From: Polytrichum commune
Taxonomy: Eukaryota > Streptophyta > Polytrichopsida > Polytrichales > Polytrichaceae
Length of the DNA stretch: 64,000 bases
Direction: 5' to 3'
NCBI GenBank assembly: GCA_950295325.1
Contig: OX485809.1
Location: forward strand, 25,558,144 to 25,622,143
Shown here in pieces: positions 1 to 58,266 of the stretch. How positions within the stretch are numbered: position 1 is the first letter of the stretch; every line of letters starts with the position of its first letter. The position numbers and the translations under genes are program-made. The notes below the pieces were generated by a model. It was not told the origin of the DNA. It ran no database searches and was given only the letters and a program-made list of their open reading frames with translations.

Positions 1-1742
1 AGGTTGAATGGGTAAATGATGGAGACCCTAGCATTGTTGACCACATAAATGAACAAATGTATAAATTGAATGAACACATAAATGTTAGTACATCTTCATC
101 TTCAGACTACTGTAGTTCAGCCTATATGTCATATGTGCCAAGTACAAATGTATCTGAAGAGGATCGTTTGGAAAGGGAGAAACTTACCCCTAGCTACATC
201 TCGGAAATGGTTCATTGAAAAAGGGTCACCAAGGATATGATAACCTTGACATGTTGTGTGCTATGAAAGAAGAGGACATGTTTGCGGGTGGCACGTGGAA
301 CTCTCCTTTGAGCCAACTAGCCGGATTTGAATGGGAGGGTGTGCAACAAGTTTAGTTGACAACATAAAGAGGTTTATCCAACCATATTGTTGTTTTCAAA
401 AGAATTGGACTCATGATATATTTGTACGGTTGTGTAAGTACACTAACATATATGCATCCACATGTCCGGTAATTAGGAAATGGACACCTATATGTGTGGA
501 CGAGATGAGAAGTTTTTTTGGAAGTTTGTTTCATGATGGGATTTAAAAAATTATCCTCTGAGTCATATCGTTTGCATTGGTCCAAATAATTACTATGGAG
601 AACACCAGAAATTACTAGGGCAATGAAAAGAAAACGATATGAAGCAATAGTTAGGTGCTTGCATTTGGTTGATAATGACTTGGTTGTGACTGACAAAATC
701 CAACCTGCGTATAGTCCAATAGCCAAGATAAAATGGTTAGTGAATGAGCACAACTCTTTATACGCCAAATTTTGGCATCTTGAGCAAAACCTAACTGTCG
801 ATGAGATGATGGTTAGGTATATGGGGAAGAGGTCTCCCATAAGACAATACTTGAAAATAAAACCTTGCCGGTATGGGCTCAAGTGTTGGGCATTGGCCAA
901 TGCCAAATCTAAGTTTGTACAAAAGTTAGAGGTTTATTGTGGAAAAGAAGAGTCATTGAGTGCAAAGGATGAAGCACTAGTTGGCTACAAAGTCGTAATG
1001 CGTCTTCTAGAAGGGTTGGAAGATAAAGGCCATATTGTAGCATGTGATAATTTTTTTACCTCACCCAAATTGTTTTGGGATTTGATGTTGAAAGGGATAG
1101 GTGCAATGGGCACTACCAAGACCAATAAAAAGGGATGGCCACAAGCATTGACTTTGGCTAAAGAGGGTCCGGAGAGGGGGGACAGACATTGGAGAATGCA
1201 CGCATCTAATTTACCAACAGCAGTAACTTGGTATGACAATAAGCCAGTTAGTTTCTTAAACATGGCGTTCTCACCTATTAACATGAATGATGATGTGTTT
1301 GTGAAAAGGTGGCATAAGACCGCGGAGAAGTCCATTCCTTCTTCCCCAAATCTAGTTCATTACCAAGCTTACATGAGAGGTGTGGATGTGGCAGATCAAC
1401 TTTGAGGCTACCACACCGTTCAAAACAAAGATCACAAGTGGTGGCATCGTTTATTTATGCACACTCTTGACACGTCATTGGTAAACTCATGGGTCATGTA
1501 TAGAAGTAACATGCAAGAGAAGGGTGAAAAAAAAATTATCCCATAGGGAATTCAATTATGCAATAGCAAAGAAACTAACGTTGTTTGGTAAACGGCCTAC
1601 AACTACATGCATGACGGAAAGTGGAGTTAGAAATGCACACATGCTTCATTATAGCATGATGTGGAGTGGGCATAAAGAAAGGAAAAGAAGAAAGTGTGGA
1701 ACATGTGGTAAAAAAACAACAATATTATTGCCCTACATGTGA
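1..1742 (+). pseudogene. piggyBac-type transposase pseudogene (DDE_Tnp_1_7), 5' end outside window
   Basis: Relic of a cut-and-paste piggyBac transposase. In frame segments from about 331 to 546, 623 to 1405 and 1524 to 1742 the order matches the family: the KWTPICVDEMRSFFG helix, the core with LTVDEMMVRYMGKRSP (first Asp), IVACDNFFTSPKLF (second Asp), and MRGVDVADQL (third Asp), then a basic tail with a CGTC pair and, one frame over, a CPTC pair, the C-terminal Cys-rich finger. Breaks seen: several stops before position 620, a TGA directly after VADQL at 1402-1404, a frameshift at an A-run near 1526-1533, and a further frameshift inside the finger. All three catalytic Asp positions survive. 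The left terminus is outside the window and I could not identify a TTAA-flanked right terminus. The antisense open frame at 352-906 is a shadow of this gene. Identification of the family is confident; activity is excluded by the breaks. Confidence 0.88.
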
Positions 1743-42313: not shown

Positions 42314-43178
42314 GTAATCAAAGGTGGTGCTTGAAGCCATGTTAACCGGTAGCTCAACTTACCATCGTGCTTACCACCAAACCTATGACAAGGGGGGCAT
42401 GCTTTTTCTTTAAACAAAATCTAGGATATCCAAAGATATCTCCTTAATGAGCCTTGCCAAGCGTAACCTAGTGATTGCAAGATAATTAACTAGTAATTAA
42501 CGAGGGCTGATGATGAATAGTGTGAGCCATAAGAGCATCCCCACTAGATCGGGTACACGCCAAATAGAGTATATAATATTTTATACCTTTGGGGAGCCCT
42601 CCATCTTGGGCGGGGCAGCTCATCTTGAGTCAGAGCCCACCAAAGTCTAGGCATACCCCCGGTATAATTAGGAAGCAATCAATAAGACAACGACACCTAT
42701 TATCTGACATGGGATAAAGTAGGATATCGGAGTATCTGATATTAAAGTAATCTCTTGGCGGGCCAGAGGAGGGCCGCCATATGAATCATTTAGGGCATCG
42801 CCAGCCCAGGGCCGGCAAGGGCTCCCGGCAGGGCGGGATGCAGGGAGCCCTGCCAATGGAGGGAGGGTTTGGCGGGAGGGGGGTCCAGCCCATTGCCCGG
42901 CAAGGGCCCCCCGGGTGGACCCCGACACACAGATCCCCCGGCTTGTGGATAAGGCAGGGTGGAGCCCGGGTTAGGGTTTAGGGTAGGGTTCTCTAGGAGC
43001 GTTTGCTCCAAATTCTTCCTCCAAGAGTTAGCAAGAGCTTCCTCCAAGTTCTAGGGTTTAGGTTCCTCTAAGTTCTTTTTTTCTTTCATAGTTGGTTTCC
43101 TTTGTGTTGTAGTTGTGATTCTCATAGTAGTGGGTACGTATGGAGGCATGGAGGAAGGAGGTCTAGGCGTCTATTGAC

Positions 43179-44447
43179 ATGGCATTACAAAGTGATGAAG
43201 ATGAAGAGGAGTATGAGGAGGGATTTTTCTCAGCTATGGTTGCAGCAGTTGTGGAGGAGGTAGAAGGTGAGGCGCTGGTGAGACGGAAGCCTGGTGGGAG
43301 TACAATGGGGAGGCAGAACATTTTTCGTGACAGGGAAGCATACCATATTAACCTCTTGTATCAGGATTACTTTGCGGAGAATCCTACCTATGGTCCTGTT
43401 CATTTCCGTAGGCGATTTAGAATGAGACGGGAATTGTACGTTTCCATTATGGATGCAGTGGTGACATTTGATCCATGGTTTGTCCAAGGTGTTGATGTTG
43501 TTGGTAGGTTGGGATTGAGCACATTGCAAAAATGCACCGCAGCATTGAGGATGCTTGCGTATGGATTGCCTGCAGACGCGTGCGATGAGTATTGTAGATT
43601 GGGGGAGTCCACAGCCCATGAGAGCTTGCACCGGTTTGTTAAGGCAGTGCGGGGATGTTTTGAGTCCACTTACTTGAGGCAGCCCACACGTCAAGATTTT
43701 GAGCACCAAATGGCTATCAATGAGGCCCGAGGCTTCCCCGGTATGTTTGGGAGTATTGATTGTATGCACTGGATTTGGAAGAATTGCCCAGTTGCGTGGC
43801 AAGGGCAATTCCAGGACAAGGACAAGAACCGCTCTATTATCCTCGAGGCCATAGCTGATCAAAGCTTGTGGATATGGCATGCATTCTTTGGACTCCCCGG
43901 GGGAAATAATGATATCAATGTTCTAGATAGATCGCCTCTTGTTTCCAACCTGCTTCGAGGAGAAGGCCGCGATCTCAGCTTCCAAGTAAATGAACATGTC
44001 TACCCTCGATTCTACCTTCTTGCAGATGGCATTTACCCCCCGTGGGCGTGCTTCGTGCAACCGATCCATGAGCCAATTGGGGAGATGAAAGAGCACTTCA
44101 CTATGTGCCAAGAGAGTGCCCGAAAGGATGTCGAGCGTGCCTTTGGCGTATTGCAGGCGAGGTTTGAGATTCTGAAAAACCCCGTCCGACAATGGGATCT
44201 TGGCACAATTGAAGACATCATGATCGCATGTATAATCTTGCACAACATGATCATAGAAGATGAGCAAGGTTTGTCACTAGAGGCTTTTGGTGATTGGGGC
44301 CTTCCGGTTGAGCGGGTGAGGCATCCGCTATCATTTCGAGAGTTGCGATCAGGCACTAGGGAACTTGAGAATGTTGAGGCACACTTTGCTTTGCGCAATG
44401 ATCTCATTCAACACTTGTGGACGGTGAAAGGAGGGTTGCAGACTTAG
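43179..44447 (+). CDS. PIF/Harbinger transposase (HARBI1-like nuclease), 422 aa, apparently intact
   Basis: DDE nuclease that cuts and pastes the element at TWA sites, normally with a Myb/SANT partner (ORF1). Acidic N-terminus (MALQSDEDEEEYEEG), HTH-like region about residues 60-165 (LSTLQKCTAALRMLAYGLPA), then the catalytic core: GSIDCMHWIW with Asp194, GGNNDINVLDRSP conserved near 242-253, LLADGIYPPW with Asp283 and KDVERAFGVLQARF with Glu319, spacing DD35E as in the family. IACIILHNMIIEDE follows as in plant PIF proteins. Length is normal. A single open frame with no stop; the start at 43179 is the first ATG of the frame and sits about 390 bp inside the left terminus. The antisense frames at 43230-43880 and 43923-44267 are shadows. 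Whether it is expressed is unknown. Confidence 0.93.
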   Translation: MALQSDEDEEEYEEGFFSAMVAAVVEEVEGEALVRRKPGGSTMGRQNIFRDREAYHINLLYQDYFAENPTYGPVHFRRRFRMRRELYVSIMDAVVTFDPWFVQGVDVVGRLGLSTLQKCTAALRMLAYGLPADACDEYCRLGESTAHESLHRFVKAVRGCFESTYLRQPTRQDFEHQMAINEARGFPGMFGSIDCMHWIWKNCPVAWQGQFQDKDKNRSIILEAIADQSLWIWHAFFGLPGGNNDINVLDRSPLVSNLLRGEGRDLSFQVNEHVYPRFYLLADGIYPPWACFVQPIHEPIGEMKEHFTMCQESARKDVERAFGVLQARFEILKNPVRQWDLGTIEDIMIACIILHNMIIEDEQGLSLEAFGDWGLPVERVRHPLSFRELRSGTRELENVEAHFALRNDLIQHLWTVKGGLQT

Positions 44448-44686
44448 ATTTACACCATAGGGCTGCAAATTTGAATTCTGATAATATGAGACTCTCTTTA
44501 TTGTGAAAAAAATTGGGCATTGAGGTTAAGACCAGTCCCACCATTTCTGTAACCCATCATGTGATTCTCATTAAAGGCACCTTGATTTTGACTTAAACCT
44601 ACACTATGCAAACCATACATAACATTTGTATGTCCAAATGCACTAGGCTGGGAGCACACATAATCAGTTTGTGGCACTTCTACACT

Positions 44687-46555
44687 TAACCCTGCTCTAA
44701 AAGTTCTACACTGGCTTGGTCCTTCGAGTCTTCTGTCTTGGCTGCCACCGAGCGTCTCGTCGGGTTGTGACTCCCCTGCAGCAGCTTGGGTGTCCGGGAT
44801 TGCCTCCGTGTCGCCCCAGTTCGAGTCCTCTTGATCTCCTGCAATCACATGCAAGTTACACAAATGTCAAACACCACTCTGTAACCAGAACAGAGCTCAG
44901 ATGCTGTGCTTTCCCTTGTTGTCAGAAAGAGTGGTTTCCTTTTCCTGAATTGCCAAATCCTCGAAAGTCAATCTTCAAATGCGCTCTTCATTGTGTTGGT
45001 CTGTAACACAATACAGTGATGTCATTATTTTCGTGTTTATCGAGACACATAGAATTCTCATATTGACAGGCTCAAAACAGTATAATGAGACAAAAATATT
45101 GGGGCATCAAATATGTCTCCATCCCCATGATCGCCATGATCTTAAGTTCTGCAACTAGCTGACACATTTAAGTTATAAACAAATTAAGTCCTTCCTAATT
45201 GGTTCTTCAAATATGGACTGTCCCTGTTGTTACTTTCAGCTTGAACCAAAACTTTCAAAGGGAGATGTTGCTCATCGTAACTGCATGGTCAGATGAGGAT
45301 CAAAGAACAAACACCATAAAGACGCATATTTAAGAGAGATTAAACTACATCGTCACTTTTTATTAACTACTCCACACTGAATATTGAACACAATTGGAGG
45401 ACTTATGAATTCAGTTAAGAATCAACAAACATACACTTCCAATAACCATAACTAAATCAGCGGAGGCCCAATTTTTAAACCGGTTTTGTTGATGTTTCAT
45501 CATAGACTTGCTCATACAACACGAGTTTCGTTGTGTAAATAATCAATAGAAGTTAAAGAACATGAAAAACAAACCGAATAACACCCCACATACGTTATCA
45601 TGTGAGATGAAAACAGAAGAAAATTCCTAAGTGGATAGAGGGGAGAGAACCAAAAAAAACAAAACTGGAGAACTTACAGCAGGAATATTTATGGCCACTT
45701 TCTGGCCCTGTAGGCAGTGTCCGACAATGCTGCACGCAAAGTAGAGTGTTGGCGAGTCTGATTCTTTCACCATGTACTGTGCAGTCAAGCATTGAAAGAA
45801 CAATTCATTTATAAGACCAATTTTACACCACTATGAGCAGAGAAGAAAGTTACAAATCAAGAGCATCATCAACATTAAGAAATCTTCTGGAGTTTCCTCA
45901 CCCTGGGTCAAACAGACACCAATGGAATCAACATAGGAAAAAAACCAAGTACAAGGCTGGTGGCACTCCACATAACCACTCTATTCTTCAGATTTGCCAA
46001 TGACGATGAAGGAGATCAAAAAACTTACAGTAGTGGGGCTTCCATCAGTCACTTGCAAGGCATTGCTGCCTATTGAGCAGCTGGTATATTCATCTAAGGT
46101 CTTCACAATGTACACCGTGTGTGCACCTCTTTCGTAATTGAAAACTGTTCAGAAAATAGAACAAACTGTAAGTATCCACTTGACTGAAACATTAAAAAAG
46201 CATCCAGGGGAAACGGATGCTCGTTCAGAAACATCTAGTTCAAACAGAATTAATATTGTACAAGATCGAATGTGAAACTTCTGAAGATTGAAGAGAGGGA
46301 CATACTTAGCGAATCTCCCACAGTGACATTCACAGAATCTGACCAGTTCTTGTATGCATTCTCCAGGGCGGTTGCATTCACAACTCCATTCAAAGTGTTG
46401 ATCCACAAGGAACCATTTATGTAACCACTCCCTACAATGTATTGCCTCGCTGTTTCAGCTTGGACGTGCATTCCCATGTTTATGCACAATCCTAGAATTG
46501 CCGCCAGACGAATTATGGAAGGAACAAATGCTCTGCTGCATGATTGTGAAGTCAT
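44687..46555 (-). CDS. Phytocyanin (blue copper protein, stellacyanin-type ligands), captured inside the Harbinger element
   Basis: Secreted small copper protein. Four exons by GT..AG signals: 46306-46555, 46029-46144, 45678-45776, 44687-44839; the joined frame is open, 205 codons. Start chosen at 46555 because it gives a clean signal peptide (MTSQSCSRAFVPSIIRLAAI, cleavage after MHVQA); Mets at 46564 and 46576 are alternatives. Domain landmarks: QYIVGSG strand, NVTVGDSLIFNYERGAHTV with His ligand, Cys in DEYTSCSI, then LYFACSIVGHCLQGQKVAIN carrying Cys and His ligands and Gln in the axial position, as in stellacyanins. The last exon in phase gives a basic Ser/Thr tail without GPI-type hydrophobic end. 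The normal plant gene usually has one intron, so three introns are notable. It lies between transposase and delta-COP fragment within one transposon. No defects seen; expression unknown. Confidence 0.78.
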
Positions 46556-46914
46556 ATTTGTCATTCTTGGAATCATGATTGGTGTGACTTCTGAAAAATG
46601 AAGAGAAAAAAAACGCAACAACTATTATTATGCTCGTGTTTTGCAACAAAGATTAGCTTCTCTACTCACTCTTTAAGCACACTAAAGCTCACCAGGCTTG
46701 CGAAAAATGTGACTACAAGCCCGTATAACCTAGTCGGAACTCTGTTTCTAGAGAACTTTACCAGAATCTTGATATCGAAGCAACTCAAGACCGGCTGAGA
46801 GAGTTTTAGAATTCACAAACCGGCACTAGTTCTGACCTCTGTTCTCCAATACATACATTCGACTCTTGTTGGTGATCGTGGATACGATCACTCCCAAGGT
46901 TTGGCAAAACTTAC

Positions 46915-48404
46915 CTCCATTCTCCATCCACTTAGTTCACCATAGGCACATCACGGAGGGCAGGCAAAGGAATGTGAATAATAACGATTTGAAGTTCAAA
47001 TGATTTAGAGGCTTCATATTCGATATTCACATATGATTCTCCACCAGATACTGATGGCCAGCAATTGACTGCAACATGAAAACATATAAGTATTTATCAT
47101 CAGCACAAAGTTATCTGCTGTCATTCTAAACAAGCAACAATCTTTGTGCTGAAAGAAAATCACTCAATAATATCAAGAAATACCATTCTTGATCCTCTTA
47201 GACAGAGCAGCACACAATATTTGTAACATGAAATACACATACATCCTTGTAGAATCATATAACAGTTTCCAGACTTCGTTGAGACACTAGGTTGAAAACA
47301 AAAAAGTAGAAATAGGCATGAATAAGCCACTCTACACATTCATGATCACGTACTGCTCAGAGGAACCAGAGAATCTTTTTTGCTTTGCATACGCCACTTT
47401 AAGATACCAAGAGGATTTCCTGTGGGGAATGGTCGGCTGGGATCCTTTAACCCCAGAATATTTTTGTCAGAATATAAGTTCTTGTCGATGTTGGGATGTG
47501 TCTTGAAAACAAATGCTCTGTTAGCACTTGACTCAACCTGTAGACAAGCCATAATAATTTAGACCACAGCAGCATTACACATCTATTTATGCAATCTTTT
47601 AAAGACTGCATGACCATACAAGAATTCTCCTCAGATACAAATACATGCAGTTTTGAAGTATGTACATCCTAACTGTATATTCTTCTGATCTATCTCAACA
47701 AAGGGAGCACTCTCTCACCACAAAGTCACATCCATCAGAGTGTACAGAAATTGTTTCATCATTACTAAGATGACGTAAAACAAAAATCAAAGATGTCATA
47801 ATGAAGATGTACCTGCACTCGAATGTAAGCATCCTCTTCGTTCTGCACAACAAGAGACATACTACCCTGTACTTCCAGATTCTCAACACCACCATCCTTC
47901 TTCAATTGAACTACAAGCTTCTCCTCCACTCCCACTGTTATGGGATCTGAGCTCACAGGCACAGCAGCTGCTCGTGCTGGACCAGGAGCCACATCTTCAA
48001 CTATAACCTCGCCTTCAGCTTTGAGTGACTCCAGGAATTGATTTGTCTTGGTCGACTTGCCCAATTGCATGCCAGATCCCTTGGCAGGAGCTGAGGCAGA
48101 GGTGGGACGAGCTGTTGCAAAAGTCACAAAACACAGTTCTCAGCAAACCCAGAATCCCCTAAGATACAGACTGGAACAAAATTTTAAGCTGACAGCTTGA
48201 AGGAATATTCTACAGGTAACTGCTGAAATCTCGGTTGCCACAGTGGCTTCCAGTGCCATAGCATATAGTCAAGATCACTGTGAACTCGCATACCTTTAGG
48301 CTTAAAGGTATCTGCATCCATGCCAAAACTTGATGCATTGTTTCCAAAACCTCCACCACCAGAGGTATTGATGTCACTGAAGCCATTATCAAATCTCATT
48401 GAAT
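46915..48404 (-). pseudogene. Coatomer subunit delta (delta-COP) gene fragment, four internal exons, captured
   Basis: Delta-COP is the mu-like subunit of the COPI coat acting in Golgi-ER traffic. Exons in minus-strand order: about 48294-48404 (GFSDINTSGGGGFGNNASSF.. KPK), 47813-48111 (GMQLGKSTKTNQFLESLKAE, EEKLVVQLKKDGGVENLEV), 47354-47537 (FKTHPNIDKNLYSDKNILGL, KDPSRPFPTG, ILKWRMQ) and 46915-47068 ([28 protein letters not shown]). GT..AG sites and phases agree. These cover the linker and the first half of the mu-homology domain, roughly residues 190-400 of a protein of about 525. The N-terminal longin-like region and the last exon(s) are absent. A TAA at 46932-46934 lies where relatives have Gln before VDGEW, a C-to-T type change. 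The fragment cannot make working delta-COP. It sits 360 bp upstream of the phytocyanin start on the same strand. Confidence 0.85.
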
Positions 48405-48860
48405 GCATCATCGGCATCAAGAACATGTCTGAGGTCCAAGAACATGCATAGTTGTTGACACCTGATGTCCTTATGAGAATCTCAGCAGGCAAGCATCGGT
48501 TCCTCTTCTTCCTTTACTTAATTACATGATTTCTACATGGAAATCGTGAGATAATTACCACCTGAAATTGTAATTGATGACTATCACTTCGTTTGAAAAT
48601 TTTCACCTATAACTGAGTAGTGTATCGCAGCCGACCATGTGAGAATCACACCTTCACTACCCTCGTCTTCTCCTTTTAGTACGAGGAAGACTAGGTTATC
48701 AGCTGAATCAAGTAACTGAATCTGTTATTTTACTGAACTCGAAGGTTGACCAGTTACAACAAGCAACAAATCTTATAACAAATTTTAGTAACTGCACATG
48801 TAATAAGTTCATGTGCTTGAAGGTTGACAAGTTACAACACGAATAGCTGGGAAATGGAAA

Positions 48861-49150
48861 CTAACCCACCTTGCAGAGATCTCCACGGTTTTGCAGGCTT
48901 TGAGTCGACAGAGAAAGCTCTGCAGATGACATGGAGGTGTCCGAACGATCCAGCTCCGAAGGGCTACCATCATGTGGTGACGATCTAGTAATTGTCAAGC
49001 TCTTGCTTGCACTAATTGTGGTGTCTGGAGATGGAGGAGAACACTCCAAGCATTCGGCGAATTCGTAGGTGTTGTCGGCACCCAGCATTCGGCGAATTCC
49101 AACTGCAAAAACCCTCTAAACCCACAACCAACAATCCCAGCACCCTAAAA
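48861..49150 (-). other. Unassigned segment between delta-COP fragment and ORF1
   Basis: Open frame 48861-49088 reads Ser/Thr-rich text (ISASKSLTITRSSPHDGSPS) with no recognised family; it may be ORF1 3' sequence, more captured DNA or chance. 48405-48860 shows no coding pattern. Confidence 0.3.
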
Positions 49151-50316
49151 CTAAACCCGTAATCCCAGCAGACAACAGGAAACCCTACTCCCAACAATGT
49201 CAACCCCAGGGTTTCGGCATTCACCTGTGAAGACGGGCAAAATTCGAGGAGTCTCATCCGCAACTGCAGCGCCAGATTCCAAATTGGTCGGAGAGGGTGC
49301 CCACGGTGGTGCAGGCGTGTCGAAGGCCACCACAGGGACTGCAACGGCGCGATTCCTTCTAGTGCTCGACTCCAGGTTGCGGTCCTTGATGAGCTTCGCG
49401 TGTTCAAGCTCCTCTAGCTCCACAGCACGCCTCTCCACCCTCATGCGTCGCTCCAGTCTTTCAATCTCCTCCTGCCGACGGAGGGTGAAATATCTTCTTG
49501 CCTCCTCGGTCATGCCCTCTTCCAACGGCATGGTGAAGAGAGACATTGCACACTAATCTTGCAGTGCATTTGCCTTGCGGAGGCTCGCTTCCGCCATGGT
49601 TTCTGTAGCCCGAGCTTGACATTGCAACACCTTCTCCCGTTTCTTCTACTGCAAGAGATCCACCTTTGCCGACTTCGAACCCTGTGGCCTGGTGGGACGG
49701 GGGGAAACCCTGTGGGACTCGCGACGACAAACCTCTGTGCACTTGGTTCATCTGCAACGAGGACCTCATCTTCTTCGGCACTTGGTTCATCCGCCATGCC
49801 AACCTCACCAGCAATTGTCGGAGGAGAAGGAGATTTCCGCTTGCCCATGCTTTGCCCTCTAGGGCTAATCTCCGCTGATCGCCGTTGCACATCCACAGGG
49901 GAATCCCACCACCTCGGAATCTCCTTCAAAACATGCCAGCAATGCAAGTAAGCAAATTCTTGGTGCTTGGGATGCCTATCCCGATAAAATTGGAGCGATT
50001 TGTCAACAACATCGTCAAGGGAGGCGCCGGACTCTCTGCAATCAAACACTTGCTTGTACGCCCCACAGAATTTGCCCACATCGTGCTTGATTTGAACCCA
50101 TTTTGTCTCTAGCGACCTAGTTGGTCTCACAGGACTTGAGCGTGGTTTGCTCTGATTGAAATGAGCGGTGATGCGATCCCAGAATGCAGAATTGCGTTGA
50201 CCATTGCCACAAATTGGGTCTTGCGAAACAGCAAGAAAACTCCTACACAAGCTTCTCTCCTCATCGGCACTGAAATTTCTTCCCTTGCGTGGCTTTCCCG
50301 CCATTTGGTGTGCCAT
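49151..50316 (-). pseudogene. PIF/Harbinger ORF1 (Myb/SANT-like accessory protein), frameshifted with two stops
   Basis: ORF1 supplies DNA binding and nuclear targeting for the transposase. From the Met at 50316: RKGRNFSADEERSLCRSFLA and WDRITAHFNQSKP form the Myb/SANT helices, then RSLETKWVQIKHDVGKFCGA, followed by the linker and a C-terminal coiled coil TEEARRYFTLRRQEEIERLE at 49420-49510. After about 49690 the coding text moves to another frame, where KVDLLQ and KKREKVLQCQARATETMAEA are separated by a TAG, and ANALQD and CAMSLFTMPLEEG by another TAG. Both stops fit CAG-to-TAG changes. The Myb half is intact as a single open frame. It may therefore yield only a truncated protein. Confidence 0.8.
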
Positions 50317-50664
50317 GGTGGCCTCTGCCACGACCGTAGCGGGAGGACAACTTCTCTTGGCAAACTCGAAAAATGTGCCGAGAGCGGGAGTAGCTTTACA
50401 GGGACCCTGTGCATAACGGGCTAGGTACCGAGCCCGTTGGCCCGAGCCCGGGCTCACTATTCCCGGTAGTTACCGTTGCCGGGAATGGGCTGGCGATGCC
50501 CTTATGGCGGGGGAAGGCCTTTACTATACCCGGGCCGGTTCTAAATTATGGGGGACCGGACATTGGTGGGGCTCAATTTATGCCGGTACCGCCACCTAAG
50601 AACCCGGGATGCCCCATTTTTGGCGTTGGCATGCCCTATGCCCGGTCTGGTGGGGACGCTCTAA

Positions 50665-55149: not shown

Positions 55150-55850
55150 AATGGCCCCCAATGCCCATGGAGGCCGTGTCGTTCGGCCTCAGGTGGATGA
55201 GGCCACACCACCTCACCCATATAAGCCTCTAGCACTCTTAGGCGGGGGCCCTACCCCACCGTCAAGAAACCTTTTGTCTCTCTACCAAAAGTTGGGGCCA
55301 AGTAGACATTTTCCCTTAGCCGCTAGGCCTAGAAGCCCCTAGCAGCTTCAGACCATCATAACTTCCTTATGTGATCTTTGATGCTAACAAGCGACCACTC
55401 CATCTTCATCTACGCTTCACGTAGATGGCGATGGACTCCTCACGTAAATGACTTGCCCATTTGGGCAAGCATTGAGGAAGTTATGCATGTTCAAACCTTG
55501 GCAGTCCCGGGAGCCACTCCCAGGCCACTGCTGTACCAGGGCGCTGTCCCGGGACATCGCCCCACTCAAATTGCCATAACTCCTAGCTCACGCCTCCGAT
55601 TAAGGTGTTCTTGAGCATTCTAGAATCTACACGCCATAAGCTACGTACAACTCATGGCCTTACCCTCGTGCCTCCTAGTCTCCGTGGGTGGGAGGTGTTC
55701 CCAACGCCCGGGGCCCTCACCCATACTAGGATCACTTGGGCCTTCTCACCAACAACGTCACAAGTTCCAGGTGTCACTCCGGGGTCCCCCTTGTGCCCAT
55801 GGTGTTTCGGGCACTCCTCATGGAGAGGTGCACGACAACATGTGAGGTTG
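55150..55850. repeat. Dispersed repeat, inverted copy of 31354-32000
   Basis: GC-richer block with colinear matches to the reverse complement of 31354-32000 (for example GCCATAACTCCTAGCTCACG and CATGGAGAGGTGCACGACAA). The open frames in it are in different phases between copies, so they are not conserved proteins. Confidence 0.55.
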
Positions 55851-56292
55851 ATCACACCGATCACTTTTGGCACCATCCGTCAACATCTCCGACTGTAATG
55901 TTGTGAATAGTGGTGGGCCAACATAATCCCCAACAATTTCACGGCTAACACCGGCCATAAAGTTTGGTGTGATTGGGGCTTCAAGGACTAATCACACCGG
56001 CCACTTCTAACAACATCGTCCGTCACCATCTCCCACTATAATGTTGTGAATAGTGGTGGGCCAACATCTATTTCTCAACATAATCCCCAACAATTTCATG
56101 GCTAGAACCGGCGAGAAAGTTTGGTGTGATCGGGGTTCAGGGGTTGATCACACCGGCCACTTCTTGCACCATCTGTCAACATCTCCGGTTGTAATAATGT
56201 GAATAGTGGTGGGCCAACATCTATTTCTCAACATAATTCCCAACAATTTCACGGCTAGAACCGGTTAAATAGTTTGGTGTGATCGGGGCTGA
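55848..56292. repeat. Tandem array, three units of about 140-155 bp
   Basis: Units start at about 55848, 55990 and 56144 with GATCACACCGGCCACTTCT-like text, contain GTGAATAGTGGTGGGCCAAC and CAACAATTTCACGGCTAGAA, and end in AGTTTGGTGTGATCGGGGCT. Units 2 and 3 share a CTATTTCTCAACATAAT insert absent from unit 1. Confidence 0.75.
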
Positions 56293-56297
56293 TCATA

Positions 56298-56965
56298 TAG
56301 TCTACCCTCTATAAATGTTAATCCTCGGGAGTGGATCAAAGTTAACATTTATAGAGGTATTAACAGTTAAAATTTATAAAATTACTTTTTTGAGCAATAT
56401 ACAAATCCTAACATTTATAAATATAAGCAATTGTGAAGAGTCCTTGTGAGAGAATACCATTCATAAAATTGCAAACCCGATCAAAACTTTATTCAATATC
56501 AAGTTTACAAATCACGGGTGAAGTATGAATCAATGGTTCTTTGGTGAAATTCATCTGCATGCACAACTTACAAATATTTCTCAATCTGCACCAACAAACC
56601 CACATACTTGGACACATCACATGAACGTGATTCCATGTACCTTCTAATGGTACCAAAACTAGATTGCAAGTCACTATAAGATGGAATGGGTTCCACCTCA
56701 CACTCCTCTCCCTCACAATCATCATCTGAGACATTAGAAGTCCCACCAATACATTGTAACTGGATGTGTAGTTTTTATCATCCAAATTATGGTTGTATTT
56801 CATTCATTAACATTTATGGAGTCAAATTTACAAAGAAGGGAGTACCATTTTGTTAACAGTTAACACGTTTAACATTTATAGTGTGCAATATGTGGGGAGT
56901 AGAAGAAAAGTAACATTTAGAGAGGGTTAACACTTATAGGTGTAACATTTATAGAGGGTGGACTG
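56298..56965 (-). mobile_element. pogo-like element, 668 bp, TSD TA, with transposase C-terminus
   Basis: Left end TAGTCTACCCTCTATAAATG and right end inverted CAGTCCACCCTCTATAAATG, flanked by TA at 56296-56297 and 56966-56967. Same terminus as 41040-41528. Contains the 3' end of a transposase gene (56568-56770, minus), making it a direct internal-deletion derivative of the autonomous element. Confidence 0.8.
56568..56770 (-). pseudogene. pogo/Tigger-like transposase C-terminal fragment
   Basis: Minus strand reads GTSNVSDDDCEGEECEVEPI then PSYSDLQSSFGTIRRYMESR and SKYVGLLVQIEKYL before a TAA at 56568-56570. The acidic block followed by an amphipathic helix region is the usual C-terminus of pogo/CENP-B-type DDE transposases. 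No DDE core remains. Assignment rests on this tail plus the pogo-type terminal repeats around it. Confidence 0.6.
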
Positions 56966-57320
56966 TAGCTCGTTGGTGGTTCCACTTGGCACATTTAGCT
57001 TAGCCAGACTACTTCTTGCTCAGAAACAGCAGGTACCACACAAGTGGCTGGAGTTCAAATTTTCGAGTATTCGTAAGTTAGCCCAGGGAGTCCAACATCT
57101 GGGATATTGTTGTTTAGTCTTATCATTCTCCATCTGAAGGCCACCAAGTTTACCACATTGGTTTGCTATATCTTGTCCACTGCTGACAAGATTTTCCTCT
57201 CAATGGGGAGTATATATTAGGTACGTTAGCTAGCTCGTTCACCCCAAAATGATTATGTTTAACATGTCCGATACTTCACTGCTGACAAGATTTTCCTCGA
57301 CATTGCATAAATCTTAAGTT

Positions 57321-58266
57321 CTTAACAATGTTATGTTTGGCATGTACTTGTAATGGTGGACTTATATGCACTCTTGTGAGATTGGCTTGACAAAATGAGA
57401 TCAATGTCACCATGACAACTTCACAAGCGTACTTCTGTACTAGTTTTATTATTATATTATTACAGATTTTTAAAGAAATTCATGCACAAGTACATAACAT
57501 GGTTCTTTCGAACACTTGGCTACATCATGGATTTTTTTGTGTTGAAATTTATGTGTTTTTTGGACCACCGCTGGAGTCATTTTGTCATTTGGATCACCTG
57601 CATCACTGAGGCGATGTGATTGGGCCTTGTTTGATCGTGGGCATGGTGCATCCAAGTTGTCGATCAACCAAGGCCCATCCAAGGGCCTCAGTGGTCCTCG
57701 TCAGCGTTGGGGCTAGGGGGAGGGGATGCCACCTTGGGGCGGGCCATGACGCAGGAAATGGATGCATACTAGGGCCTAGGCCTATGCCTAAATCTTAACA
57801 ATGTTATGTTTGGCACGTACTTGTAATAGTGGACTTATATGCACACTTGTAAGATTGGCTTGACAAAATGAGATCAATGCCACCATGACAACTTGACAAG
57901 CGTACTTATGTACTAGCTTTATTATTATATTATTACAAGTTTTTAAAGAACTTCATGCACAAGCACAAAACATGGCTCTTTCGAACACTTGGCTTCAACA
58001 CGGATTTTTTTCAGTGTCAAAATCTATGCGTTTTTTAACCACCGATGAAGCCATGTTGTCATTTGGACCACCCGCGTCACTGAGGCAATGTGATTGAGCC
58101 TTGTGTGATCGCAGGCATGGTGCATCCAGGCCGTCAATCACACAAGGCCCATCCAAGGGCTTCAATGGTCCTCGTTGACATTGGGGCTTTAGGGAGAGTG
58201 GATACCACCTTGGGATGGGCCATGACAGAGGAAATGGATGAATACTAGGGCCTAGGCTACCATGGT
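57321..58266. repeat. Tandem duplication, two units of about 473 bp
   Basis: CTTAACAATGTTATGTTTGG starts at 57321 and again at 57794. The two units stay colinear to AATGGAT.AATACTAGGGCCT near 57780 and 58250, with about 85-90 percent identity by eye. Open frames in unit 1 (57412-57609) are not preserved in unit 2. Confidence 0.8.

What the first reader, a model, noticed from the sequence alone, without database searches (positions are those of the whole stretch)
42793..50501. Harbinger element carrying two host gene segments plus an intact-looking transposase (Pack-Harbinger)
One pair of perfect 15-bp termini with TTA duplications encloses transposase, a phytocyanin gene, a delta-COP fragment and ORF1. 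Gene-capturing TIR elements are usually small and non-autonomous; here cargo of about 4 kb with introns sits between the two transposon genes of an element whose DD35E transposase frame is open. That would be a self-mobilising gene carrier. Seen: termini, TSDs, ORFs, exons. Inferred: capture and mobility.
Basis: partly seen in the sequence, partly recalled or inferred. Interest (0 to 1): 0.92.

Follow-up and report, generated by a model that had tools for sequence, protein, structure and literature searches.

The report
Moss transposon carrying five gene pieces
A moss jumping gene picked up pieces of at least five of its host's genes, some of them one inside another, in an intron of one of its own genes, and then moved with this cargo to a second place, which gives an unusually readable record of how such elements collect host DNA.

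Summary
Window 42790-50504 is one PIF/Harbinger element with perfect 16-bp termini and TTA on both sides. It sits in a 418-bp MITE that survives in many unfilled copies with a single TTA. A second full-length copy (0.51% substitutions) lies elsewhere on the same contig with TAA duplications, so the element moved with its cargo. All lie inside the ORF1 intron and in ORF1 sense. Read together with a truncated sister copy, three pieces are nested: phytocyanin( B3( delta-COP )B3 )phytocyanin. A second lineage of the family carries different captured DNA in the same intron. "Self-mobilising" is only partly supported: the transposase frame is open, but ORF1 has a frameshift shared by the cargo copies examined, so ORF1 was truncated or supplied in trans when they moved. 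Gene-carrying PIF elements are known from grapevine (PMC2528002). This is a new variant, in a moss, and its layering points to repeated interrupted gap repair rather than the neighbouring-insertion model.

The parts
42790..42792 (.). left target-site duplication TTA
   Evidence: sequence; 8 of 8 fetched unfilled MITE copies have a single TTA at this point
42793..42808 (+). left terminal inverted repeat GGGCATCGCCAGCCCA
   Evidence: same termini on 14 MITE-size pairs and on the second full-length copy
43179..44447 (+). PIF/Harbinger transposase, open frame, 422 aa from the first ATG
   Evidence: Plant_tran 6.9e-87, DDE_Tnp_4 9.3e-14; 93% best database hit; also open in L021 and L043
44498..44838 (-). 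ORF1 exon 2, starting after a conserved TTGCAG acceptor
   Evidence: conserved in L021, L022, L027, L043 and, with a stop and a frame break, L025
44839..49224 (-). ORF1 intron, which contains the whole cargo
   Evidence: GT donor and AG acceptor motifs also present in the sister copy L022
44877..49040 (.). captured cargo between the native left part (to 44876) and native right part (from about 49041) of the intron
   Evidence: junction alignments; the right edge is uncertain by a few bases
44883..44922 (-). piece matching a ribosomal protein SA gene (C7); 40 bp left here, 190 bp in L025
   Evidence: Ribosomal_S2 at the C7 locus E=1.2e-7; the name SA is recalled
44922..44981 (-). piece matching an unidentified gene-like locus (C5:24.77 Mb); about 350 bp in L025
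44981..46771 (-). phytocyanin gene segment from C4:11.17 Mb, three exons with splice signals; the last exon is missing
   Evidence: 98.7% over 1792 bp with L031; last exon read by eye from the donor
46785..46871 (-). piece of the LEC2/FUS3-type B3 gene from C3:7.12 Mb (far side)
   Evidence: 97.7% with L035:3137-3051
46891..48408 (-). delta-COP gene segment from C2:28.65 Mb with several exons and introns
   Evidence: 97.6% over 1518 bp with L034; splice sites kept
48409..48420 (-). 12 bp of the B3 gene directly after delta-COP, same junction base as in L025
48426..49037 (-). second B3 gene segment (near side): end of a long N-terminal exon and the following intron
   Evidence: 99.5% with L035:2117-1501; B3 identity of the gene (Pfam, below cut-off)
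49225..50316 (-). ORF1 exon 1 from the first ATG; 1-nt shorter C run shared by window, L021 and L025, plus a private stop in the window copy
50486..50501 (-). right terminal inverted repeat
50502..50504 (.). right target-site duplication TTA
42533..42789 (+). left part of the 418-bp MITE into which the element inserted
   Evidence: joined-flank search
50505..50662 (+). right part of the same MITE

Best explanation
It is a PIF/Harbinger DNA transposon of a moss. Its ORF1 intron was filled, step by step, with pieces of at least five host genes, and the whole composite then transposed. Shown: termini, TSDs, unfilled site, a second full-length copy at an unrelated site, a matching locus for each of the five pieces, preserved donor splice sites, and the nested order phytocyanin( B3( delta-COP )B3 )phytocyanin when the window copy and the truncated sister L025 are read together. 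Inferred: each capture happened when a break or excision gap inside the element was copied back from both ends and failed in the middle, and the gap was closed by copying an ectopic gene. That puts each newer piece inside the older one. Movement probably used the element's own or a sister's transposase, with ORF1 protein supplied by a sister copy or with a truncated ORF1. I put identity and transposition with cargo near 0.95, serial nested capture near 0.85, and gap repair as its cause near 0.6.
For: Second full-length copy: 39 substitutions in 7712 aligned bases and 3 gaps, TAA duplications, other flanks. Unfilled site: the joined flanks with one TTA gave 44 matches (40 of 373 candidates scored), 41 of them full or near-full copies at 94-99%; 8 of 8 fetched show one TTA. 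Donors. Nesting: L025 reads C7, C5, C4 3290-2797, C3 4332-3986, C2, C3 2794-2370, C4 984-391; the window reads C7, C5, C4 3290-1501, C3 3137-3051, C2, C3 2795-2783, C3 2117-1506. Both share the left native junction and the C2|C3 junction to the base. In L025 the outer layers are more diverged from their matches: 18/190 and 17/350, against 15/1078, 5/766 and 17/1486. Recurrence: the L022 lineage has other captured DNA in the same intron, an 85-89% piece and beside it a 96-97% piece of a hydrolase-like gene. No terminus at up to 3 mismatches lies inside the cargo.
Against: The three inner layers cannot be ordered by divergence (Fisher p 0.17, 0.37 and 0.59), so inside-is-younger rests on position for them. 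The outermost matches (90%, 95%) may be paralogues, not true donors, and are seen on the left side only, so their nesting is not shown; nor is nesting shown in L022. The 87-bp piece at the right end of the L025 cargo has no convincing match among the fetched donor loci. The right native boundary is shared by the window and L025 although different cargo abuts it, and L022 and L027 share both native boundaries with different fill; a simple nested-deletion story does not explain these. Gap repair itself was not observed.
Confidence: 0.82

Rival explanations
1. Neighbouring-insertion model: two elements inserted on either side of host genes, lost their inner ends and fused, so that the DNA between them became cargo (proposed for Pack-CACTA and extended to other TIR superfamilies).
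For: It is the published model for Pack-TYPE capture (PMC8903248, passages).
Against: Pieces of five loci on five contigs, three of them stacked one inside another; both transposon genes stay on the outside with conserved ORF1 splice sites; no terminus lies inside the cargo at up to 3 mismatches, and none of the 39 terminus matches (up to 2 mismatches) lies at the five donor loci.
Confidence: 0.08
2. A different gene-capturing element (Helitron, Pack-MULE, CACTA) that already held the mosaic inserted into the ORF1 intron.
For: Helitrons and MULEs commonly carry gene pieces (recalled; review PMC13317346, passages).
Against: Cargo ends show no TIRs, no CTRR-type end and no duplication by eye (motifs recalled). 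About 200 bp and 100 bp of intron sequence next to the two boundaries in L022 and L027 are missing in the window rather than split.
Confidence: 0.07
3. Fully autonomous, self-mobilising gene carrier.
For: Open transposase frame in the window and L021 copies; termini intact.
Against: ORF1 frameshift shared by window, L021 and L025 and therefore likely older than their split. Transitions between the two full-length copies favour CG sites (16 at 444 CG, 7 at 614 CHG, 12 at 2442 CHH sites), as expected of methylated, silenced copies. A relative at C5:39.36-39.38 Mb has open transposase and ORF1 exon 1 and might supply proteins in trans.
Confidence: 0.15
4. Ordinary host genes at their normal place with unrelated transposon pieces nearby.
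For: None found.
Against: Second copy elsewhere, unfilled site, and parental genes with further exons on other contigs.
Confidence: 0.01

Closest known systems
Pifvine-3 PIF elements of grapevine with transduplicated gene segments (Benjak et al. 2008, PMC2528002; passages read)
   Same: PIF family that kept transposase and ORF1 coding capacity, mostly TAA/TTA duplications, up to 3.5 kb of sequence matching host exons and introns, in some cases shared by several copies.
   Different: Described there as a long 5' region; here the cargo is inside the ORF1 intron, matches five loci, is partly nested, all in ORF1 sense, and the host is a moss.
Pack-TYPE elements, including Harbinger-PIF ones of rice and maize (PMC8903248; passages read)
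   Same: Gene pieces between Harbinger-type termini.
   Different: Pack-TYPE elements are non-autonomous by definition; packFinder files anything with a transposase hit as autonomous, so elements like this one would not be counted as gene carriers.
Pack-MULEs and gene-capturing Helitrons (recalled; review PMC13317346, passages)
   Same: Mosaics of several host gene pieces moved together.
   Different: Other superfamilies, termini and target sites; mostly non-autonomous.
Kaonashi/ULP-carrying MULEs (PMC13317346 and PMC2528002, passages)
   Same: Elements that keep transposon genes and a captured host domain.
   Different: One recurrent captured domain, not recent multi-gene cargo.

Membership tests
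PIF/Harbinger superfamily | DDE transposase of the Plant_tran/DDE_Tnp_4 type | tested here: met
PIF/Harbinger superfamily | catalytic DDE residues in place | not tested
   both domain models are covered nearly end to end but residues were not checked one by one
PIF/Harbinger superfamily | 3-bp TWA target duplications and inverted termini | tested here: met
   TTA in the window, TAA in L021
PIF/Harbinger superfamily | second gene ORF1 with a Myb/SANT-like domain | tested here: inconclusive
   ORF1 is conserved beside the transposase in relatives down to about 51% identity (L024), but Pfam gives only NAM-associated below its cut-off
PIF/Harbinger superfamily | related MITEs with the same termini | tested here: met
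   14 facing pairs of 328-373 bp among the 39 terminus matches; 11 of the 14 were fetched and all 11 match both element ends
Pack-TYPE (Pack-Harbinger) | host gene fragments between the TIRs | tested here: met
Pack-TYPE (Pack-Harbinger) | non-autonomous, no transposase | tested here: not met
   open transposase frame
Autonomous Harbinger | intact transposase and intact ORF1 | tested here: not met
   transposase open, ORF1 exon 1 frameshifted in window, L021 and L025
Helitron | TC...CTRR ends, no TSD, rolling-circle helicase | tested here: not met
   cargo ends read by eye; TIR and TSD element outside; helicase not searched for

The most novel reading that the evidence does not exclude
The ORF1 intron of this Harbinger family is a reusable cargo bay. 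Host gene segments are loaded by repeated repair, inward, with a strong bias to ORF1 sense (7 of 7 segments, 5 of them with a gene identified, one of these weakly), and can be exchanged at fixed native boundaries between copies. Sense-oriented exons with intact splice sites in an intron of the element's own ORF1 gene would make it an exon-shuffling machine.
Probability: 0.35. Interest if true: 0.82.

Novelty: new variant of a known kind. Interest (0 to 1): 0.62.

Why it matters
How TIR transposons pick up genes is still debated. Here several recent captures are stacked like tree rings, donor loci survive at about 1% divergence for the inner layers, sister copies preserve other states of the same cargo, and the unfilled site is known. 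That makes the order, size and junctions of single capture steps readable. It also shows that elements with a transposase, which a published annotation tool sorts out by design, can be gene carriers, and extends the phenomenon to a moss.

Tried and rejected
Looked for Helitron, MULE or CACTA ends at the cargo boundaries by eye and found none. Looked for a match of the 87-bp right-end piece of L025 in the fetched donor loci: nothing convincing; it was not searched genome-wide. Expected L022 to be a cargo-free control; it has its own cargo, so 'cargo-free' in my first notes is wrong, and the native intron is known only in parts. Tried to order the inner layers by divergence: not resolved. My notes also call the two L022 pieces outer and inner; they lie side by side, so that wording is not supported. 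Host species: delta-COP is closest to mosses; Polytrichaceae was a guess from seven large contigs and a recalled chromosome number, and the paper search did not support it (none of the 8 papers listed, of 182, holds the word Polytrichum).

Literature: Harbinger capture in mosses, one search found 0 papers for its three terms; one search listed 10 of 39, none on point by title, and the Sphagnum genome paper in it was not opened; (ORF1 intron) found 0. Gap repair: one search found 0, one search found 1 that I did not read. Papers were seen as passages only (PMC8903248, PMC2528002, PMC13317346, PMC7282668).

Not done: expression, other accessions, an unfilled site for the L021 copy, catalytic residues, structure prediction, a genome-wide search with the transposase DNA (searches did not complete).
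Full report
WHAT IS THERE. The window lies at G000:C7:25558144-25622143 of a 408-Mb assembly with seven large contigs (contig lengths). The host is a moss by its delta-COP: of the ten best hits, eight carry a moss name (Physcomitrium, Ceratodon, Sphagnum, 77-84% identity) and two are unnamed, one of them the best at 86%. The element spans 42790-50504. Its termini are GGGCATCGCCAGCCCA, perfect over 16 bp, and they are the only two such sites in the window at up to 3 mismatches. TTA flanks both ends.

TRANSPOSITION. Genome-wide, the terminus with TSD at up to 2 mismatches gives 39 matches: 16 facing pairs and 7 single ends (pairing is mine from the table). Fourteen pairs are 328-373 bp; 11 of these were fetched, and in all 11 the two ends match the two ends of this element. 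Two pairs are 7.7 kb: the window and C7:37041631-37049372 (L021). L021 matches over the whole length in reverse orientation, has TAA duplications and different flanks. The two differ by 39 substitutions in 7712 aligned bases (35 transitions) and 3 gaps; transitions fall on CG sites at 16 per 444, CHG 7 per 614, CHH 12 per 2442. The window site is a 418-bp MITE. Its joined flanks with a single TTA gave 44 matches, a lower bound because 40 of 373 candidates were scored; 41 are full or near-full at 94-99%. Of the 8 fetched, 8 show one TTA at the joint with 1 or 2 mismatches in the 43 bases compared. So the composite, cargo included, has moved as one unit.

CARGO. The search with 44448-49600 gave 48 matches from 40 scored of 5279 candidates, so counts are lower bounds. 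Single strong non-element loci stand for the pieces: C4:11172402-11174191 (phytocyanin), C2:28653023-28654523 (delta-COP), C3:7118782-7119398 (B3 factor; Pfam B3 1.1e-4 is below its cut-off; closest solved relatives LEC2 1.8e-22 and FUS3 2.2e-21). A search with the sister copy L025 added C5:24765626-24765977 (unidentified, 95%), C7:13113196 and its paralogue C7:13058948 (about 90%; Ribosomal_S2 family, the name SA recalled), and a further stretch of the C3 gene. The phytocyanin, delta-COP and B3 donors have flanking exons that the element lacks, which sets the direction of copying. Introns are included, so these pieces were copied from DNA, not from mature RNA. The splice sites checked in the phytocyanin, delta-COP and B3 pieces are kept.

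POSITION. ORF1 is a two-exon gene on the minus strand. The same donor and acceptor motifs stand in the sister copy L022, so the intron is 49224..44839 and holds the whole cargo (44877 to about 49040). All five captured genes read in ORF1 sense; for the C5 locus this rests on ORFs without a Pfam match above cut-off. The two segments of the L022 cargo also read in ORF1 sense, one with a hydrolase-like exon (PGAP1 7.4e-5 below its cut-off, Mbeg1-like 1.9e-4 just above it; weak solved relatives), one by ORF only. That is 7 of 7, 5 with a gene identified, one of these weakly. The chance is 1/128 or 1/32, noticed after the fact.

NESTING. L025 (with its inverted duplicate L026, 99.95% identical) lacks the first part of the transposase and has no left terminus in the list, but keeps another version of the cargo. 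Reading donors along the plus strand, L025 runs C7, C5, C4 3290-2797, C3 4332-3986, C2 1516-3001, C3 2794-2370, C4 984-391, 87 bp unknown. The window runs C7, C5, C4 3290-1501, C3 3137-3051, C2 1501-3001, C3 2795-2783, C3 2117-1506 (C2, C3 and C4 numbers are positions in L034, L035 and L031, the stretch 4332-3986 being extrapolated). Both copies share the left native junction and the C2|C3 junction to the base. The simplest ancestor has delta-COP inside B3 inside phytocyanin, with the C7 and C5 pieces beside it, followed by different deletions. Junctions show little or no microhomology and short fillers of 5, 13 and 19 bp (my reading); the 19-bp filler holds a 7-bp inverted repeat. In L025 divergence from the matches is 18/190 (RPSA), 17/350 (C5), 15/1078 (phytocyanin), 5/766 (B3), 17/1486 (delta-COP). 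The first two steps differ (p 0.044, 0.0005), the inner three do not (p 0.17, 0.37, 0.59).

RECURRENCE. L022 (C5:3.74 Mb, TTA on both sides) shows none of the five donor pieces (one 71% match over 121 bp to the C4 locus and one of 24 bp to the C7 locus). Its ORF1 intron instead holds 413 bp matching C2:6.135 Mb (85-89%) and beside it 2.85 kb matching C5:40.667-40.672 Mb (96-97%), with 1.44 kb of the donor skipped. The C5:39.36-39.38 Mb copy shares both; L027 shares the first piece and has other DNA, largely repeats, in place of the second. L022 and L027 have the same native boundaries on both sides of that second fill.

MECHANISM. Concentric order is what repeated interrupted gap repair predicts (my inference): synthesis from both ends fails in the middle, and the gap is closed by copying another locus. 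It is not what the neighbouring-insertion model predicts (PMC8903248, passages), since no terminus lies inside the cargo and both element genes remain outside. The reuse of native boundaries might reflect repair from a sister with different cargo, where homology stops at the boundary; this is speculation.

AUTONOMY. The transposase frame is open in the window, in L021 and in the C5:39.36 Mb copy (L043); L022 has stops. ORF1 exon 1 has a C run one base shorter in the window, L021 and L025 than in L022, L023, L027 and L048. In the ATG frame it stops at codon 269 in all three. Of the four relatives only L023, the other end of the C5:39.36-39.38 Mb copy, is free of stops; L022, L027 and L048 have one each. 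The shift is shared and so probably older than the split of the cargo copies; either a truncated ORF1 suffices or ORF1 came in trans. In rice Ping both proteins are needed (PMC7282668, passage).

PRIOR WORK. Benjak et al. 2008 (PMC2528002, passages) reported grapevine PIF elements with up to 3.5 kb of transduplicated exons and introns, shared in some cases by several copies. So gene-carrying PIF elements are known; I rate this a new variant. The searches for the same in mosses were made, in open-licence papers only.

Noticed in passing
42533-42789 and 50505-50662: The element sits in a 418-bp MITE of another family, present in at least 41 full or near-full copies at 94-99% identity, a uniform family.
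   Followed up: partly
590-1402 (+): piggyBac-type transposase fragment (DDE_Tnp_1_7, E=4.8e-47) in a moss genome; recalled as rare in land plants.
   Followed up: no
L022, L027, L025 and window about 49041: Native boundaries are reused: L022 and L027 share both boundaries with different fill, and window and L025 share the right boundary next to different cargo.
   Followed up: partly
L025 and L026 (C2:23.18 and 23.23 Mb): Inverted duplication of at least 8.7 kb, 99.95% identical, about 39 kb apart, holding the truncated sister element.
   Followed up: no
L027:7139-8114 and L028:7514-8489 (C6:21.28-21.37 Mb): A relative of the element is split inside the transposase by about 83 kb bounded by 976-bp direct repeats 99.3% identical, probably retrotransposon insertion(s).
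   Followed up: no
45294-45597: A stretch of the captured phytocyanin segment belongs to a repeat with many copies at about 80-84%; it is also in the donor locus.
   Followed up: no
46872-46890: 19-bp filler between B3 and delta-COP pieces contains a 7-bp inverted repeat (read by eye).
   Followed up: no
55846-58257: Direct repeats of about 150 bp and about 470 bp spacing.
   Followed up: no
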